This document shows positions 35,903 to 47,233 of a stretch of 64,000 nucleotides of DNA, in pieces (the stretch's first letter is position 1; each line of letters starts with the position of its first letter). The DNA comes from an uncultured Erythrobacter sp. (GTDB taxonomy: Bacteria; Pseudomonadota; Alphaproteobacteria; Sphingomonadales; Sphingomonadaceae). The DNA lies in the NCBI GenBank assembly GCA_913055155.1, contig CAJXJR010000009.1, forward strand, positions 1-64,000, in the 5' to 3' direction. Position numbers and translations under genes: made by a program. The notes beneath the pieces are model-generated. The model worked only from the letters and a program-made list of their open reading frames with translations, searched no databases and had not been told where the DNA came from.

Positions 35903-36870
35903 GCGAAAATGCCTCCCCGCCTGGCGCGCACATCGTCGGGCACGTTGGTATCGAACCAGCGCGCCACGGGGGCGAGCGCGGGATGCGCCAGGTCGCGCTC
36001 CATCGCCTGCCACACGCGCGGGATCATGGAGAGGTATTTCGGCTTGTCGTCGCGCTTCCACAGGCGGGTGAAGATGCCCACGATCTTGGCATTGCGCTGC
36101 GCGCCGAGCACGGCGTAGCTGGCTTCCACGTCCCAGGCGGGACTGGTGGCGGACTTGTAAGCCTCCAGCATCTGCCCCTCCAGCTCTTGCGAGACATCGC
36201 GGCGCGCATCCTGCAGCAACGAAACCAGGTCATAGGCCGGATGGCCGACCAGCGCATCCTGGAAATCGATCAGGCCCTGCCCGTCGGCAAGCATCATGAT
36301 GTTTTCGGCATGGTAATCGCGCAGCACGGTAACGCCCGGCTGTTGTTCGGCCAGCACCGGGGCCAGCACTTCGGCCCATGCCGCGCGGTAGCTGGCATCA
36401 TCCGCGGCGATCCCGGCTGCCGGGCAGAACCATTCGGTGAACAGGCCCGCCTCGCGCTGGTAGGTGGGCATGTCATAGGCGGGGAAAGGCCCGGGCGGCA
36501 GGCTGTGCAGCCTGGCCACGGCGTCCACGGCCATGGCATAGGCCTGCTGCTCCGCAGCCGGATTGGCCTCGATCCATTCCTTCATCCGGTCGTTGCCGAA
36601 ATCCTCGGTCAGCACCCAGCCCTGTGCGGCATCCTCACCCATGATCGCCGGGCCGCGCATGCCGTGGGCGTTGAGCCAGTCGGCCACTTTCAGGAACGGC
36701 ACCGGGTCCTCCTCCGGCGGCGGGGCGTGCATCAGCATGGCGGTGTCATCGCCGCGACACAGGCGGAAATAGCGGCGGAAGCTGGCATCACCGGGAATCG
36801 GTTCGATCGCGGCGTCGGCCCAGCCTGCCTTGGCCAGGAAAGTGTCGATACCCGTGGGAAGGTCGCTCAT
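35899..36870 (-). CDS. amgK: N-acetylmuramate/N-acetylglucosamine anomeric kinase (AmgK type)
   Basis: A 323-aa kinase of the aminoglycoside phosphotransferase fold. The N-lobe has PGDASFRRYFRL. The catalytic loop is LRDYHAENIMML (near residue 188, with E where many homologues have D) and the metal motif is LIDFQDALVGHPAYDL. The tsaE-amgK-murU order is typical of the MurNAc recycling pathway, where AmgK makes the 1-phosphate used by MurU. ATG at 36870 shares ATGA with the tsaE stop. Antibiotic resistance is not implied. Confidence 0.9.
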   Translation of the reverse strand: MSDLPTGIDTFLAKAGWADAAIEPIPGDASFRRYFRLCRGDDTAMLMHAPPPEEDPVPFLKVADWLNAHGMRGPAIMGEDAAQGWVLTEDFGNDRMKEWIEANPAAEQQAYAMAVDAVARLHSLPPGPFPAYDMPTYQREAGLFTEWFCPAAGIAADDASYRAAWAEVLAPVLAEQQPGVTVLRDYHAENIMMLADGQGLIDFQDALVGHPAYDLVSLLQDARRDVSQELEGQMLEAYKSATSPAWDVEASYAVLGAQRNAKIVGIFTRLWKRDDKPKYLSMIPRVWQAMERDLAHPALAPVARWFDTNVPDDVRARRGGIFA

Positions 36871-37304
36871 GGCATGCGCTCTAGCCAAGCGGACCCGCCC
36901 TCGACAACGGCCAAGCGTCCGTCACCCGCAATTTCCAGCGCGATTTGCAGGCAGGCTGGCTCATGCGCGAAACCGCCTGCATGATCGGGCCACTCCGCCA
37001 GCAGCACCGCGCCTTCCCGGTAATCGTCCAGGCCCAGCTGTTCCGCCTCCGACGAATCTTCGAGTCGATAGAAATCGGCGTGGGCCACGGGCGGGTTCAG
37101 GTTGTCGTATGTTTCCACGATGGTGAAGGTGGGGGAAGGCACTTCGCCCTCGTGCCCCAGCGCGGCAAGGATCGCGCGCGAAAGCGTGGTCTTGCCCGTG
37201 CCCAGCCCGCCGGACAACGCCACCACGTCGCCGGGCCGCAGCCTTGCGGCGATGCGACGGCCAAACGCTTCCATCGCTGCCAGGTCGGGCAGGTCAACCT
37301 TCAA
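36867..37304 (-). CDS. tsaE: tRNA threonylcarbamoyladenosine biosynthesis ATPase TsaE
   Basis: ATPase of the TsaBDE complex that installs t6A at position 37 of ANN-decoding tRNAs. The 145 aa match the family. The P-loop is SGGLGTGKTTLSRAIL (about residues 31-46), followed by SPTFTIVETY and HADFYRLEDSSE. The start is a TTG at 37304 that overlaps the stop of the upstream kinase gene as TTGA, so its translation is coupled. Confidence 0.95.
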   Translation of the reverse strand: MKVDLPDLAAMEAFGRRIAARLRPGDVVALSGGLGTGKTTLSRAILAALGHEGEVPSPTFTIVETYDNLNPPVAHADFYRLEDSSEAEQLGLDDYREGAVLLAEWPDHAGGFAHEPACLQIALEIAGDGRLAVVEGGSAWLERMP

Positions 37305-39631
37305 GGCAGCTTCACCTTGGCAGTCGTCCCCGCGCCTTTCTCCGACTGGATTTCCAGCCGGCCGCCATGTGCTTCTATCAGCTGGCGAGCGAGTGGCAGG
37401 CCCAGCCCGCGCTTGCCTTCCCTGCCGTCGCTGCCGGCCAGGCGATAGCCGTCCAGCGCGCGCGCCAGTTCGCTCGGGCGCATGCCTTCGCCATTGTCCG
37501 AAATCACGATCCGCGCGCCCGACTTCCGGCGGCCCAGTGCCACCAGGATGCGACCGCCCGTGGGCGTGGCCGCGATGGCATTGTCCAGCAGGTTGCCGAT
37601 CGCGCGGCCCAGCTGGCGCGGGTCTGCCTGCACGTGCCCTGCGCTCTTGTCGCCGCGCAGGTCGAGCGTGATGTTCTTGGCATCGATGGCGTCTTCGCGC
37701 GCACGCACCACCTGCGTGGCAAAGTTCAGCAGGTCGACATCCTCTGTCGCCATCGGCAGCAGGCCCGCCTCGCTTTGCGTCAGGTCCAGCACGCTTTCGA
37801 TCTGCTGCGACAGCCGCTCCACCGAAGCGATGATCGCGGCGACATATTCCTGCCCTTGCGACGAAAGCTCACCCGCCACCCCCGATTGCAGCAGTTCTGC
37901 GAAACCGCCGATGGAGGTGAGCGGCGTGCGGAATTCGTAGGACATGTTGGCAAGGAAGCGCGTCTTCACCGCGTCCGCCTCTTCCAGCGCCTGGTTGCGT
38001 TCACGCAGCGCCTCTTCCGCCTTTGTCGAATCGGTCACGTCGAGCACGGTCAGCAGGCCGTTGCCGTCGGGCAGCGGCACGCCGGCGAATTCCAGCGTGC
38101 GCCCGTCGCTCATCACCACGCGGCCCCCGCGCTGCTGGCGATCGAGCGTGGCGGCGCGCACGACTTCGCCAATCGCCTTGCGCTGCGCCGGGCGAGCGAG
38201 GCGGTTGGAGATGCGATCGAGCAGCTTGTCGACATGCGGGTGTTCGTCGAAGAATTCCTCCGGCAGGCCCCAGATCGCGGGGAAGCGGCGGTTCCACAGC
38301 TGCATGTGGCCATCGGGCGCGAACACGGCCAGCGATTCGAACAGCGAATCGATGGTGGCCGTGCGGGTGCGCAGCAGCGTGTCGCGCGTGGCCGACAGGG
38401 CGAGCTGTTCGGAACGGTCCTCCGCCAGCAGCACCAGCCCGCCATCGGGCAGCGGCTGGGCCACCACGCGCAGGTGCGTGGAATCGGGCAGCGTCCAGGC
38501 GTCCTCCACCGGCGCATCCTCCATGAACCAGCCTTCCAGCTCGGTGCGCCATGCGGGGAAATCGCGCGTTTCGGGCAAGCGACCGGCATCGCGCGCCATG
38601 TCCAGGAAGCGATGGAAATCGGGCGGATCGACGCGCGCCGATGGCGGCAAGGCAAAAATCCTCTGGAACGGCTGGTTGGAGAACGACAGCCGCCGATCCG
38701 CATCGAACTGCGCCACGCCGATGGAAAGCTGGTCGAGCATGCTGCGCTGCGCCGCGCGGAAGGCACGGAAGGCGCGGGTCTGCTCTTCCATCTCCTCGAT
38801 ATCGATGGCGTATCCGGCCACCCCTTCCTCGCCCAGCGGCAGGTCGCTGACGCGCAGGGTGCGGCGCTGGTTGCCGACGGTGGCCTGCACGATGCGCTCC
38901 ACCGGCATGTCGCGGCTATGCGCCTGCCCGGCAACTTGCGCGGCGGTGAGGCCGTCGACGGTCTCCACCAGCTCGATCTGTTCCTCCACCACGCTGGCGG
39001 CGTCCTTTGCGCCCACTGCGCTGACATAGGCACTATTGACCAGCCGCAGGTCCATCTCCGGCCCGCGGAACCACATCGGCATGGGGGCTGCCTCGATCAG
39101 GCCGACCAGCGCGGCAAAGTCGTTGCGCGCGCGCGCCGTTTCCTCGCGCAGGCGAGCGAGTTCGCCCTGGCTTTCGGAAAAGTCGAACCACCACACCAGC
39201 GCCGCCCCGCCCGAGGCGATCAGCGAATCCGCCAGCTGGCCGCGCACGGCCAGGCTGCGGGTGGAGCCCTTGGGCGTCACCACCATGCTGAACGGCGCGG
39301 CGGTTTTCTGCGTGCGGCGCACGGCTTCGCGAAGGTCCTTCAGGTCTTCATCGACAAGGCCGCTGCCCAGTTCGCTTAGGAAACCCGGCAGGCTGTCCAG
39401 CCCCAGCCACTTGGCCAGGCGATCGGGCCCCTCGATCTTGCCATCAGGGCGCACCAGCAGCGGGATGGCCGGCGCATCGTCGATCATGCGCGACAGGCGG
39501 CGCACCGAATTGCGCGCGTGACGGGCCGCACGTGCCCGCTGGAGAGAGCCCACGACCAGCCACACCGCGCCAAAGGTCCACGCGGCCAGCATCAGCCCCA
39601 GCAGGGCCATGGCAGAAGGCGTCAATTCCAT
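37301..39631 (-). CDS. divL: DivL-like PAS sensor kinase homologue with tyrosine at the phospho-acceptor site
   Basis: A 776-aa protein with one N-terminal membrane helix (about residues 8-28), several PAS-like segments (about 60-520), a dimerisation helix and an ATPase domain (NLLDNAIAATP, DNGEGM, GKRGLGLPLARQL). The H-box reads FLANMSYEFRTPLTSIGGF; the codon at 37937-37939 is TAC, giving Tyr565 where histidine kinases have His. That substitution, the similar length (769 aa in Caulobacter) and the domain plan match DivL, which there regulates the CckA-CtrA cell-cycle pathway and carries Tyr550. The nearby ahcY and tsaE support a conserved locus. Orthology is inferred; the Tyr is read directly. 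Confidence 0.9.
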   Translation of the reverse strand: MELTPSAMALLGLMLAAWTFGAVWLVVGSLQRARAARHARNSVRRLSRMIDDAPAIPLLVRPDGKIEGPDRLAKWLGLDSLPGFLSELGSGLVDEDLKDLREAVRRTQKTAAPFSMVVTPKGSTRSLAVRGQLADSLIASGGAALVWWFDFSESQGELARLREETARARNDFAALVGLIEAAPMPMWFRGPEMDLRLVNSAYVSAVGAKDAASVVEEQIELVETVDGLTAAQVAGQAHSRDMPVERIVQATVGNQRRTLRVSDLPLGEEGVAGYAIDIEEMEEQTRAFRAFRAAQRSMLDQLSIGVAQFDADRRLSFSNQPFQRIFALPPSARVDPPDFHRFLDMARDAGRLPETRDFPAWRTELEGWFMEDAPVEDAWTLPDSTHLRVVAQPLPDGGLVLLAEDRSEQLALSATRDTLLRTRTATIDSLFESLAVFAPDGHMQLWNRRFPAIWGLPEEFFDEHPHVDKLLDRISNRLARPAQRKAIGEVVRAATLDRQQRGGRVVMSDGRTLEFAGVPLPDGNGLLTVLDVTDSTKAEEALRERNQALEEADAVKTRFLANMSYEFRTPLTSIGGFAELLQSGVAGELSSQGQEYVAAIIASVERLSQQIESVLDLTQSEAGLLPMATEDVDLLNFATQVVRAREDAIDAKNITLDLRGDKSAGHVQADPRQLGRAIGNLLDNAIAATPTGGRILVALGRRKSGARIVISDNGEGMRPSELARALDGYRLAGSDGREGKRGLGLPLARQLIEAHGGRLEIQSEKGAGTTAKVKLP

Positions 39632-39703: not shown

Positions 39704-39738
39704 AAAAAGAAACGCCCCGGCGAAAGCGGCCGGGGCGT
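39704..39738 (-). terminator. Intrinsic terminator of ahcY
   Basis: A perfect 10-bp GC-rich stem (39712-39721 with 39729-39738, 7-base loop) is followed on the minus strand by TTTCTTTTT. It lies 30 bases beyond the ahcY stop and separates ahcY from the divL operon. Confidence 0.9.
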
Positions 39739-39768: not shown

Positions 39769-41184
39769 TCAGTAGCGGTAGTGTTCCGGCTTGAACGGGC
39801 CTTCCACCGGCACGCCGATGTAATCGGCCTGCTGCTGCGAAAGCTTGGTCAGCTTCACGCCCAGCTTGTCGAGGTGCAGCGCGGCGACCTTCTCGTCCAG
39901 GTGCTTGGGCAGGACGTAGACATCGTTCTCGTACTGCTCGTGGCGTTCCCACAGTTCCATCTGCGCCATCACCTGGTTGGTGAAGGAACAGCTCATCACG
40001 AAGCTGGGGTGGCCGGTGGCGCAAGCCAGGTTCACCAGGCGGCCCTTGGCCAGCACGATGATTTCCTTGCCGTCGGGGAACTTCACCAGATCGGTGCCCG
40101 GCTTCAGTTCGGTCCACTCGTAGTTGTCGAGCGCGCTGATCTGGATCTCGCTGTCGAAGTGGCCGATGTTGCACACGATGCTCATCGGCTTCATCGCCTT
40201 CATGTGTTCGGCGGTGATTACGTCTTCGTTACCGGTGGTGGTGACGAAGATATCGGCCCGCTTCACGGCGTCTTCCATGGTTACGACTTCAAAGCCATCC
40301 ATCGCCGCCTGCAGCGCGCAGATCGGGTCGATTTCGGTCACGAGCACGCGCGCGCCGCCGTTGCGCAGCGACTGGGCGCTGCCCTTGCCGACATCGCCGA
40401 ACCCGGCAACGCAGGCAACCTTGCCGCTCAGCATCACGTCGGTCGCGCGGCGGATGGCATCGACCAGCGATTCGCGGCAGCCATAGAGGTTGTCGAACTT
40501 CGACTTGGTCACACTGTCGTTCACGTTGATCGCCGGGAACGGCAGCTTGCCCTGCTTGGCCAGCTGGTACAGGCGGTGGACGCCGGTGGTGGTCTCTTCC
40601 GACACGCCCTTGATGTTCTTGACCGAGGCGGTGAGGTAGCCCGGCTTGCGCTTGAGGAATTCCTTCAGCGCGCGCTGGAATTCGACTTCCTCGGCATTGC
40701 CCGGCTCGGGCAGTTCCTCGCCCGCTTCCACGCGTGCGCCCCACAGCGCGAACATGGTGGCATCGCCGCCGTCGTCCAGGATGAGGTTGGCGGTCTGGTC
40801 GGGATCGTCATCGGACGACCAGTCGAAGATCTTGCCGACATAGTCCCAGTATTCGGCCAGGCTTTCGCCCTTCACCGCGAACACCGGAATGTCCTGCGCG
40901 GCGATGGCGGCAGCGGCGTGATCCTGGGTGGAGAAGATGTTGCAGGTGGCCCAGCGCACTTCGGCACCCAGAGCCACCAGCGTCTCGATCAGCACGGCGG
41001 TCTGGATCGTCATGTGCAGCGAGCCGGTGATGCGTGCGCCCTTCAGCGGCTGCGCAGCACCGAATTCCTCGCGCGTGGCCATCAGGCCCGGCATTTCGGT
41101 TTCGGCAATGTTGATCTCGGCCCGGCCATAGTCGGCAAGGGCGATATCCTTGATGATGTAATCGTTGAAAGCGGCGTCGGCCAC
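39769..41184 (-). CDS. ahcY: Adenosylhomocysteinase
   Basis: Splits S-adenosylhomocysteine into adenosine and homocysteine and so relieves product inhibition of methyltransferases. With the GTG at 41184 it has 471 aa. Features include [22 protein letters not shown], the NAD-binding [20 protein letters not shown] and GHFDSEIQ, and the C-terminal KPEHYRY that reaches into the partner active site. The GTG is chosen because AGGAGA lies 8 bases upstream and the family N-terminus [17 protein letters not shown] starts here; a TTG further up has no support. Confidence 0.97.
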
Positions 41185-41390
41185 GAGCACTTCTCCTGTG
41201 ATGTGCGGGTGATGCGTCGCCGGGGCTCCGTGCAACGCCTATGCTGCAACGCGCCATAGGCGGCTGCGGTTCGCGGGACAACCCCTAGCTACGGACCTGC
41301 CAACGGGGCCGTGCGATGACCATCAATGCGCTTGCGCGGCGGTGCGAAGTGCCTATGTCGGTGCGCGGACGGAGACAGGAGGACTATCCA

Positions 41391-46685: not shown

Positions 46686-46764
46686 TTAACCATGCCTTCG
46701 CAAGGATTTGTTAAACCTGTGCTGCAAAACCCGATGCTGTCGCAGTTTAGCTAGGGGACCAGCG

Positions 46765-46950
46765 TTGTTTGCGAAAGAATTCATCAAACGCCTGCTTCGC
46801 GATTCCCGCGGCGCAACGGCGATCGAATACGGCCTCATCATCTCGCTGATCGTGATTGCCATGATCACGGCCATGCAGGGTTTCGCCAACGAAACCATCG
46901 AGATGTGGGGCAACGTGGAAGACGACTACCGCGACGCGAATAATAGCTGA
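46765..46950 (+). CDS. Flp-family type IVb pilin 1
   Basis: A 61-aa pre-pilin. The prepilin-peptidase site is R-G16 followed by A-T-A-I-E21-Y, the usual G/xxxxEY motif, then a hydrophobic helix GLIISLIVIAMITAM and a short tail. The start is a TTG at 46765 (FAKEFIKRLL next) with AGGGGAC upstream; this gives the correct leader length, while the open frame further upstream does not. Members are the major subunits of tight-adherence (Tad) pili. No other Tad gene is in the window. Confidence 0.88.
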   Translation: MFAKEFIKRLLRDSRGATAIEYGLIISLIVIAMITAMQGFANETIEMWGNVEDDYRDANNS

Positions 46951-47053: not shown

Positions 47054-47233
47054 ATGACCTTCTTCAAGAACATGATCCGTGACGAACAGGGCGCCACCGC
47101 CATCGAATATGGCCTGATCGCTGCCCTCATCGCCGTTGCCGCCATCACTGCCATGCAGTCGCTGGGCAACGAACTGGACGACACCTTCGGCAACGTCCAG
47201 TCGGAACTCGACGACGCCAACGCCAACAACTAA
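47054..47233 (+). CDS. Flp-family type IVb pilin 2
   Basis: A 59-aa pre-pilin related to the gene just before it. The processing site is Q-G13 followed by A-T-A-I-E18-Y19, and the helix is GLIAALIAVAAITAMQ. ATG at 47054 follows AGGAG. Both genes keep the GATAIEYGLI block but differ in tail, so they look like tandem duplicates that have diverged. A strong terminator follows. Confidence 0.92.
   Translation: MTFFKNMIRDEQGATAIEYGLIAALIAVAAITAMQSLGNELDDTFGNVQSELDDANANN

What the first reader, a model, noticed from the sequence alone, without database searches (positions are those of the whole stretch)
37301..39631. DivL-type kinase homologue: Tyr565 replaces the phospho-acceptor histidine
The H-box reads MSYEFRTPL with TAC at 37937-37939, while the ATPase motifs look intact. 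Caulobacter DivL has the same substitution (Tyr550) and controls the CckA-CtrA cell-cycle pathway. The locus here sits beside ahcY and tsaE. If this is DivL, the pathway reaches into this branch and its target might include the Flp pilins.
Basis: partly seen in the sequence, partly recalled or inferred. Interest (0 to 1): 0.72.

Follow-up and report, generated by a model that had tools for sequence, protein, structure and literature searches.

The report
DivL cell-cycle pseudokinase in Aurantiacibacter
The gene is the local copy of DivL, a known alphaproteobacterial protein that looks like a signalling kinase but has a tyrosine where the working histidine should be, and it most likely reads one cell-cycle signal and passes it to the CtrA pathway; this is expected biology rather than a surprise.

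Summary
Confirmed, and mostly known. The 776-aa ORF 37301-39631(-) has Tyr565 (TAC, 37937-37939) in an otherwise normal H-box; DxGxG and GLGL are intact. It is DivL: best solved structure Caulobacter DivL 4q20; inside the DivL group of a tree built without the acceptor column (86/97); only hit at E<=1e-60 in its genome for a Caulobacterales DivL. Tyr is in the window and its 120 nearest homologues and in 134 of 136 readable order loci. The genome has CtrA, CpdR, ChpT, a CckA candidate and a DivK; no DivJ/PleC model came up in the six kinases scanned. Conservation of the Tyr in alphaproteobacterial DivL is published (PMC4211667, passages). In family f5 the ATP motif decays while Tyr stays; in Sneathiella DivL has His. 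All function is inferred from sequence.

The parts
37301..39631 (-). divL: PAS-HisKA-HATPase pseudokinase, 776 aa
39551..39607 (-). predicted membrane anchor, residues 9-27
   Evidence: hydropathy peak 2.1 over 19 residues
38012..38350 (-). best PAS_7 match, residues 428-540; Pfam counts a second PAS_7 stretch elsewhere in the protein
   Evidence: Pfam
37763..37966 (-). HisKA (dimerisation) domain, residues 556-623
   Evidence: Pfam
37919..37948 (-). H-box NMSYEFRTPL, residues 562-571
37937..37939 (-). Tyr565 codon TAC in place of the phospho-acceptor His
37304..37624 (-). HATPase_c domain, residues 670-776
   Evidence: Pfam
37484..37498 (-). G1 box DNGEG, residues 712-716
37394..37408 (-). 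G2 box GLGLP, residues 742-746
36867..37304 (-). tsaE, directly downstream, start overlaps the divL stop; same arrangement in 132 of 134 testable order loci
39769..41235 (-). ahcY, upstream neighbour, same strand
   Evidence: translation read by eye; same strand within 1.5 kb upstream in 96 of 133 testable order loci
46700..46714 (+). CtrA-like box GCAA-GGATTTG-TTAA upstream of Flp pilin 1 (putative)
46765..46950 (+). Flp pilin 1 (Flp_Fap), TTG start inferred
   Evidence: Pfam 37.5 bits, cut-off 32.2
47054..47233 (+). Flp pilin 2 (Flp_Fap)
   Evidence: Pfam 64.4 bits, cut-off 32.2

Best explanation
The protein is DivL, a membrane-anchored PAS-domain pseudokinase. It keeps the histidine-kinase fold and the response-regulator docking face but should not autophosphorylate, because Tyr565 replaces His. 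Most likely it binds phosphorylated DivK at the DHp surface around Tyr565/Arg568 and, through its PAS-DHp body, switches the hybrid kinase CckA between kinase and phosphatase, which sets CtrA~P through ChpT. Shown here: sequence, domains, family membership, near-fixity of Tyr in the order, presence of CtrA/ChpT/CpdR/DivK and of a CckA candidate, co-occurrence with DivK. Inferred from Caulobacter work: lack of catalysis, DivK~P reading and CckA control. Inferred more weakly: that Flp pilin transcription is one output.
For: PDB best hit DivL 4q20 E 5.8e-37, next 1e-24. Tree of 81 kinase domains without the acceptor column: 54 DivL rows, with the window and 4q20, are one side of a branch, 86/97; 27 other kinases lie outside, 10 of them from this genome (10 of the 12 other hits; one fell out by a length filter, one had no locus). 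A Brevundimonas DivL finds only this ORF in the genome at E<=1e-60 (1.6e-79); in 98 of 98 class genomes hit by both queries the best place is the same. Tyr in 134 of 136 readable order loci. Arg553 equivalent in 136 of 136 readable order loci; Thr557 equivalent kept in the window. DivK candidate: 124.5 bits to Caulobacter DivK, next chain 65. CtrA 425 bits, cut-off 350; CpdR 191.5, cut-off 180; ChpT 104 bits, cut-off 22.9; CckA models are the best match of the CckA candidate. DivL and DivK: both 132, neither 7, one only 4+4, of 147.
Against: No biochemistry. Two residues whose change weakens DivK~P binding in Caulobacter differ (Tyr562 is Phe577, His579 is Tyr596), and Asp595/Ala601 are Glu612/Thr618, though Phe and Tyr are the usual letters at the first two across the class. 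No DivJ or PleC model came up at E<=1e-40 in the six kinases scanned, of 12 other hits in the genome, so the kinase of DivK is unknown. The CckA candidate stays below the NCBIfam cut-off (508.6 of 1000), with its start uncertain. Against a strict link: G001, G022 and G057 (93-99% complete) have DivL without DivK, and G083 (99%) keeps DivK, ChpT, CtrA, CckA and Flp without DivL. The co-occurrence test ignores phylogeny, and several lacking genomes are incomplete. Synteny with tsaE/ahcY is not found in the mostly Brevundimonas loci (tsaE 0 of 77), so it does not itself prove orthology with Caulobacter DivL. The tool calls the tree's bootstrap unsettled.
Confidence: 0.85

Rival explanations
1. 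DivL by descent, but uncoupled from DivK in this branch: it acts on CckA through its PAS part and answers to another input.
For: DivJ/PleC not recognised among the six kinases scanned; residues 562, 579, 595, 601 differ from Caulobacter; three near-complete genomes have DivL without DivK; Brilli et al. called DivK absent or only divK-like in Sphingomonadales (PMC2877005 passages); in Hyphomonas DivK is dispensable while DivL is essential (PMC7200025 passages).
Against: A DivK with its best PDB match to Caulobacter DivK is present and DivK co-occurs with DivL in 132 of 147 genomes; 7 lack both.
Confidence: 0.2
2. An ordinary active sensor kinase in which His was lost recently or by a sequencing error.
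For: ATP-binding motifs are intact.
Against: Tyr in 121 of 121 near proteins and 134 of 136 order loci; falls inside the DivL group without the acceptor column.
Confidence: 0.02
3. Tyr565 is itself a phosphorylated acceptor (tyrosine-kinase-like activity).
For: DxGxG motif in all 60 family-f1 loci; Tyr almost invariant.
Against: Caulobacter DivL showed neither kinase nor phosphatase activity and bound TNP-ATP weakly (PMC4211667 passages); in family f5 the DxGxG pattern is found in only 4 of 29 loci (one of the 29 is cut by its contig end) while Tyr is in 29 of 29, so Tyr is kept without a normal ATP site.
Confidence: 0.03

Closest known systems
DivL of Caulobacter crescentus (PDB 4q20; Tyr550)
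   Same: PAS-HisKA-HATPase order, Tyr at the acceptor site, Arg553/Pro555/Thr557 equivalents, same DivL group in the tree, with DivK, ChpT, CtrA and a CckA candidate in the genome
   Different: 33% identity to the Brevundimonas DivL over the matched part; Tyr562, His579, Asp595, Ala601 are Phe, Tyr, Glu, Thr; gene neighbourhood differs: tsaE and ahcY here, neither found in the 79 loci
DivJ/PleC-type DivK kinases
   Same: kinase domains; the NCBIfam DivJ model is the third-best hit, at 119 of the 1000 bits required
   Different: the DivJ score is far below cut-off; the acceptor here is Tyr (that DivJ and PleC carry His is recalled, not tested)
Sneathiella DivL with His (L239, L242, P0122-P0179)
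   Same: L239 and L242 lie in the DivL group of the tree, with tsaE and ahcY in the locus
   Different: acceptor His instead of Tyr, in 58 of 58 of the nearest proteins

Membership tests
DivL | Tyr (not His) at the H-box acceptor position | tested here: met
   Tyr565, TAC 37937-37939; aligns with Tyr550 of 4q20
DivL | Membrane anchor, PAS domains, HisKA, HATPase in that order | tested here: met
   Pfam order as in the Brevundimonas DivL; anchor by hydropathy only
DivL | Groups with Caulobacter DivL, apart from other histidine kinases, with the acceptor column left out | tested here: met
   one branch, 86/97; bootstrap not settled
DivL | Single orthologue, reciprocal with a Caulobacterales DivL | tested here: met
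   (only hit at E<=1e-60 in G000); 98 of 98 shared class genomes agree
DivL | CckA, ChpT, CtrA and DivK in the same genome | tested here: met
   CckA rests on best family match below the curated cut-off
DivL | DivK~P docking residues (R553, T557, Y562, H579 in Caulobacter) | tested here: inconclusive
   R and T kept; Y to F, H to Y, letters common across the class
DivL | No autokinase activity; phospho-specific DivK binding; control of CckA | not testable with these tools
   needs biochemistry and genetics
DivJ | NCBIfam DivJ cut-off | tested here: not met
   DivJ model 119.2 bits, cut-off 1000

The most novel reading that the evidence does not exclude
In the Aurantiacibacter/Erythrobacter branch the DivL-DivK-ChpT input arm of the CtrA circuit is tied to the Flp pilus: a CtrA box upstream of the Flp pilin pair is conserved, the pair sits within about 4-23 kb of divL in most genomes looked at (21 of 27), and lineages that lack the pilins also lack DivL, DivK and ChpT while their CtrA and CckA have diverged.
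Probability: 0.45. Interest if true: 0.5.

Novelty: new member of a known kind. Interest (0 to 1): 0.33.

Why it matters
It places DivL and a DivK together in an order where DivK was once called absent (PMC2877005, passages), and joint presence and absence is an independent sequence sign that the two work together there. Families that keep Tyr but lose the ATP motif, and Sneathiella with His in the same protein, are natural experiments on what the Tyr is for.

Tried and rejected
Exact CtrA consensus TTAA-N7-TTAA in the window: 0 hits; TTAAC-N6-TTAAC with 2 mismatches: 3 hits, 5.1 expected, so the window alone gives no CtrA evidence. TTAACCAT occurs once in the window, upstream of Flp pilin 1, but in only 1 of 28 upstream regions, the window's own, and was dropped as a signal. 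Synteny with Caulobacterales divL by tsaE/ahcY: not found; I had expected it. None of the 25 NCBIfam models listed for the window protein (of 73 matched) passes its cut-off. A sigma-70/terminator scan near the pilins found nothing. Structure prediction and fold search were not run: the sequence match to 4q20 already answers the question.

Rows dropped or unreadable before counts: L177 (G098, gene split in two ORFs) has no acceptor column, so 136 of 137 order loci are readable; G075 contributes two loci. In the f5 count L173 ends with its contig before the ATPase domain and counts as lacking DxGxG. The class counts include weak hits that are not DivL (for example L296 and L298, ordinary His kinases in the tree). 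The tree used 23 of the 136 other order loci and 28 of the 108 class loci as DivL rows, picked by hand for spread; candidate rows under 171 residues fell out, among them the kinase at L008. The CtrA, CckA and ChpT searches used 17 handles and the Flp search 31, all chosen by me, not all 147 genomes. In the footprint only the 5'-most pilin motif on the majority strand of each locus was used. In one search the best place per genome was copied by hand, without the three genomes of the window's family; 10 genomes are hit by P0001 alone.

Full report
Observation. The ORF at 37301-39631 on the minus strand is open, starts with ATG and encodes 776 residues. Its H-box is NMSYEFRTPL; the acceptor position is Tyr565, codon TAC at 37937-37939. 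Pfam gives HisKA at 556-623, HATPase_c at 670-776 and PAS_7, best at 428-540. The N terminus has one hydrophobic stretch near residues 9-27. The DNGEG and GLGLPLA motifs are intact. By the named relatives the window is from Aurantiacibacter or a near genus.

What it is. The best solved structure is Caulobacter DivL 4q20 (E 5.8e-37; next 1e-24). None of the 25 NCBIfam models listed, of 73 matched, passes its cut-off, and the named relatives are called PAS-domain sensor histidine kinases or the like. A tree of 81 kinase domains, built with the acceptor column removed, puts the window, 4q20 and 52 other DivL-like rows on one side of a branch (86/97) and 27 other kinases on the other; the tool notes that the bootstrap had not settled. 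Of the 27, 10 are from this genome and stand for 10 of its 12 other hits. A Brevundimonas DivL (locus L275 = L302, 62% identical to 4q20 over 219 kinase residues) finds the window ORF as its only match in this genome at E <= 1e-60 (1.6e-79). In 98 of 98 class genomes hit by both queries the best place is the same; 10 more are hit by the window protein alone. All 79 loci, mostly Brevundimonas, carry Tyr. So this is DivL.

Is Tyr fixed? Of the window protein and its 120 listed homologues, 121 of 121 have Tyr. Of 147 order genomes, 136 have a match at E <= 1e-50. I read 137 loci, 136 with the column: 134 Tyr, 1 Ser, 1 Asp, no His. By family, as a D.G.G text pattern, the G1 motif is present in 60 of 60 loci of the window's family f1, 29 of 30 of f8 (the other is the split gene L177), 6 of 7 of f6, 1 of 5 of f2, and only 4 of 29 of f5 (one of them cut by its contig end), where Tyr is in 29 of 29. 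Tyr thus outlives the ATP motif. Across the class Tyr is in 85 of 108 loci, a set that includes weak hits that are not DivL; 7 have His. Three of the 7 (L212, L239, L242) lie inside the DivL group, two (L296, L298) outside, two were not in the tree. L239 is a Sneathiella protein, and 58 of the 58 proteins nearest to it (P0122-P0179; those that bear an organism name are Sneathiella or Sneathiellales) have His; beyond them 3 of 62 do.

The pathway. In the same genome: CtrA (425 bits, cut-off 350; contig C16), CpdR (191.5, cut-off 180; C12), ChpT (PF10090, 104 bits, cut-off 22.9; C20), a CckA candidate (best models CckA, 508.6 of 1000 bits; C12), and DivK (C16:14212-14586), which matches Caulobacter DivK at 124.5 bits against 65 for the next chain. 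A second DivK-like regulator lies at C5:156198 (92 bits to Caulobacter DivK). Six of the other histidine kinases were scanned with NCBIfam; at E <= 1e-40 none gave DivJ or PleC. Brilli et al. 2010 wrote that DivK is absent from their Sphingomonadales cluster apart from a divK-like gene of anomalous phylogeny (PMC2877005, passages). Here a DivK match at E <= 1e-22 is in 136 of 147 order genomes. It may be the same gene, and I did not build a DivK tree.

Co-occurrence. DivL and DivK: both in 132, neither in 7, DivL only in 4, DivK only in 4 of 147 (Fisher p 3.9e-7; not corrected for relatedness, and several lacking genomes are incomplete). At a looser threshold 9 of the 11 genomes without DivL give only weaker kinase hits, best 1e-38, and 2 give none at E <= 1e-15; the best hits of G017, G033, G095, G121, G133, G083, G105, G037 and G042 fall on the non-DivL side of the tree. 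Among genomes at least 90% complete, DivL is missing in G066, G083, G105, G121, G133 and DivK in G001, G022, G057, G066, G105, G121, G133. So there are exceptions both ways: G001, G022, G057 have DivL without DivK, and G083 has DivK without DivL. In 17 genomes that I chose, G105, G121 and G133 have no ChpT at E <= 1e-5, CtrA 59-66% identical to the window genome's (85-96% in five DivL-bearing f1 controls and G083) and CckA 41-46% (51-62% in those). In 31 genomes chosen for Flp pilins, 28 have them; the three without are again G105, G121, G133. G083 keeps DivK, ChpT, CtrA, CckA and Flp. The three belong to two genera, so this may be one or two events.

Docking surface. Arg553 is kept in 136 of 136 readable order loci. 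Thr557 is Thr572 here; Thr is in 57 of 59 f1 loci, Asn in 74 of 77 readable others (one f1 locus, L110, falls among the others). Tyr562 is Phe577 and His579 is Tyr596 here, the usual letters in the class (F in 96, Y in 96 of 108). Asp595 and Ala601 are Glu612 and Thr618. In Caulobacter R553A, T557N, Y562A and H579E weaken DivK~P binding while Y550H does not (PMC4211667, passages). The surface is compatible with DivK binding but not proof of it.

Neighbourhood. tsaE follows directly on the same strand in 132 of 134 testable order loci, ahcY precedes within 1.5 kb in 96 of 133; in the wider class tsaE follows in 26 of 107 loci. In the loci it is 0 of 77. A GC-rich inverted repeat with a T run between ahcY and divL (39704-39738, read by eye) suggests that divL is not simply read through from ahcY.

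Flp pilins. The window encodes two Flp_Fap pilins at 46765-46950 and 47054-47233, 7.1 kb from divL. The first pilin lies 4.2-22.8 kb from divL in 21 of 27 genomes; in 3 it is over 200 kb away and in 3 on another contig. Upstream of it, AA-N7-TTA[AG] occurs in 24 of 28 genomes between -135 and -75 of the conserved pilin motif. Other spacings from 3 to 12 give 0 or 1, except 8 hits at spacing 8, which go with the 8 boxes that have AAA in the left half. Twenty windows further upstream give 0-2 of 24-28; 500 letter shuffles of the same stretch give mean 0.55, maximum 4. G118, G145, G136 and G065 lack it. The stricter form with TTAA in full is in 17 of 28. The window's GCAAGGATTTGTTAA at 46700-46714 is the only BHAA-N7-TTAA hit in 64 kb, but 1.71 are expected by chance: the evidence is conservation, not the single hit. 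The box is also in G083, which has no DivL. A similar CAAACCAATTGTTAA lies about 90 nt upstream of this genome's own ctrA, the only place of that pattern in the four own-genome regulator loci scanned. The Caulobacter consensus is TTAA-N7-TTAA, and pilA there is driven by CtrA from a site overlapping -35 that deviates by one base (PMC11264516, passages). CtrA binding at the box is plausible but untested; another regulator could own it.

How it works. In Caulobacter DivL has no kinase or phosphatase activity in vitro, reads DivK~P through its docking face and controls CckA (PMC4211667 passages; PMC7200025 passages). The parts needed for this are here, apart from a recognised DivJ/PleC, so the same mechanism is the best reading; every functional step is inferred.

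Novelty. The 2014 PLoS Biology paper (PMC4211667, passages) states that the Tyr is conserved throughout alphaproteobacterial DivL homologues, with Ala in Magnetospirillum magneticum as the exception; the Sneathiella His is a further exception. A 2021 location survey covers divL and Sphingomonadales genomes (PMC8116508, passages). Searches for DivL with Sneathiella and for CtrA, Flp, pilus and Sphingomonadales together found no paper in the held library; DivL with Erythrobacter found 2, one listed, not read; DivL with Sphingomonas found 5, of which I read passages of two. The finding is a new member of a known kind.

Noticed in passing
46700-46714 (window) and loci L392-L419: Conserved CtrA-like box (AA-N7-TTA[AG]) upstream of the Flp pilin pair in 24 of 28 genomes.
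   Followed up: partly
L239, L242 (and L212); P0122-P0179: DivL orthologues with His at the acceptor position; His in 58 of 58 proteins nearest to the Sneathiella one.
   Followed up: partly
order family f5 loci (e.g. L147-L169): DivL keeps Tyr (29 of 29) but the DxGxG pattern is found in only 4 of 29, one of the 29 being cut by its contig end.
   Followed up: partly
G105, G121, G133: Genomes 99% complete that lack DivL, DivK, ChpT and Flp pilins, with diverged CtrA and CckA.
   Followed up: partly
37340-37627: The DivL ATPase domain itself scores over the ChpT-family (PF10090) cut-off in the genome search (23.8 against 22.9 bits), but under it in the protein scan (20.4).
   Followed up: no
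G000:C5:156198-156560: A second DivK-like single-domain regulator; two or more DivK matches also in G019, G025, G100, G030, G108 and G078.
   Followed up: no
L177 (G098); L112 and L164 (G075): G098 divL is split in two ORFs; G075 has two DivL matches. Both assemblies are fragmented.
   Followed up: no
39704-39738: Terminator-like GC-rich repeat with a T run between ahcY and divL (read by eye).
   Followed up: no
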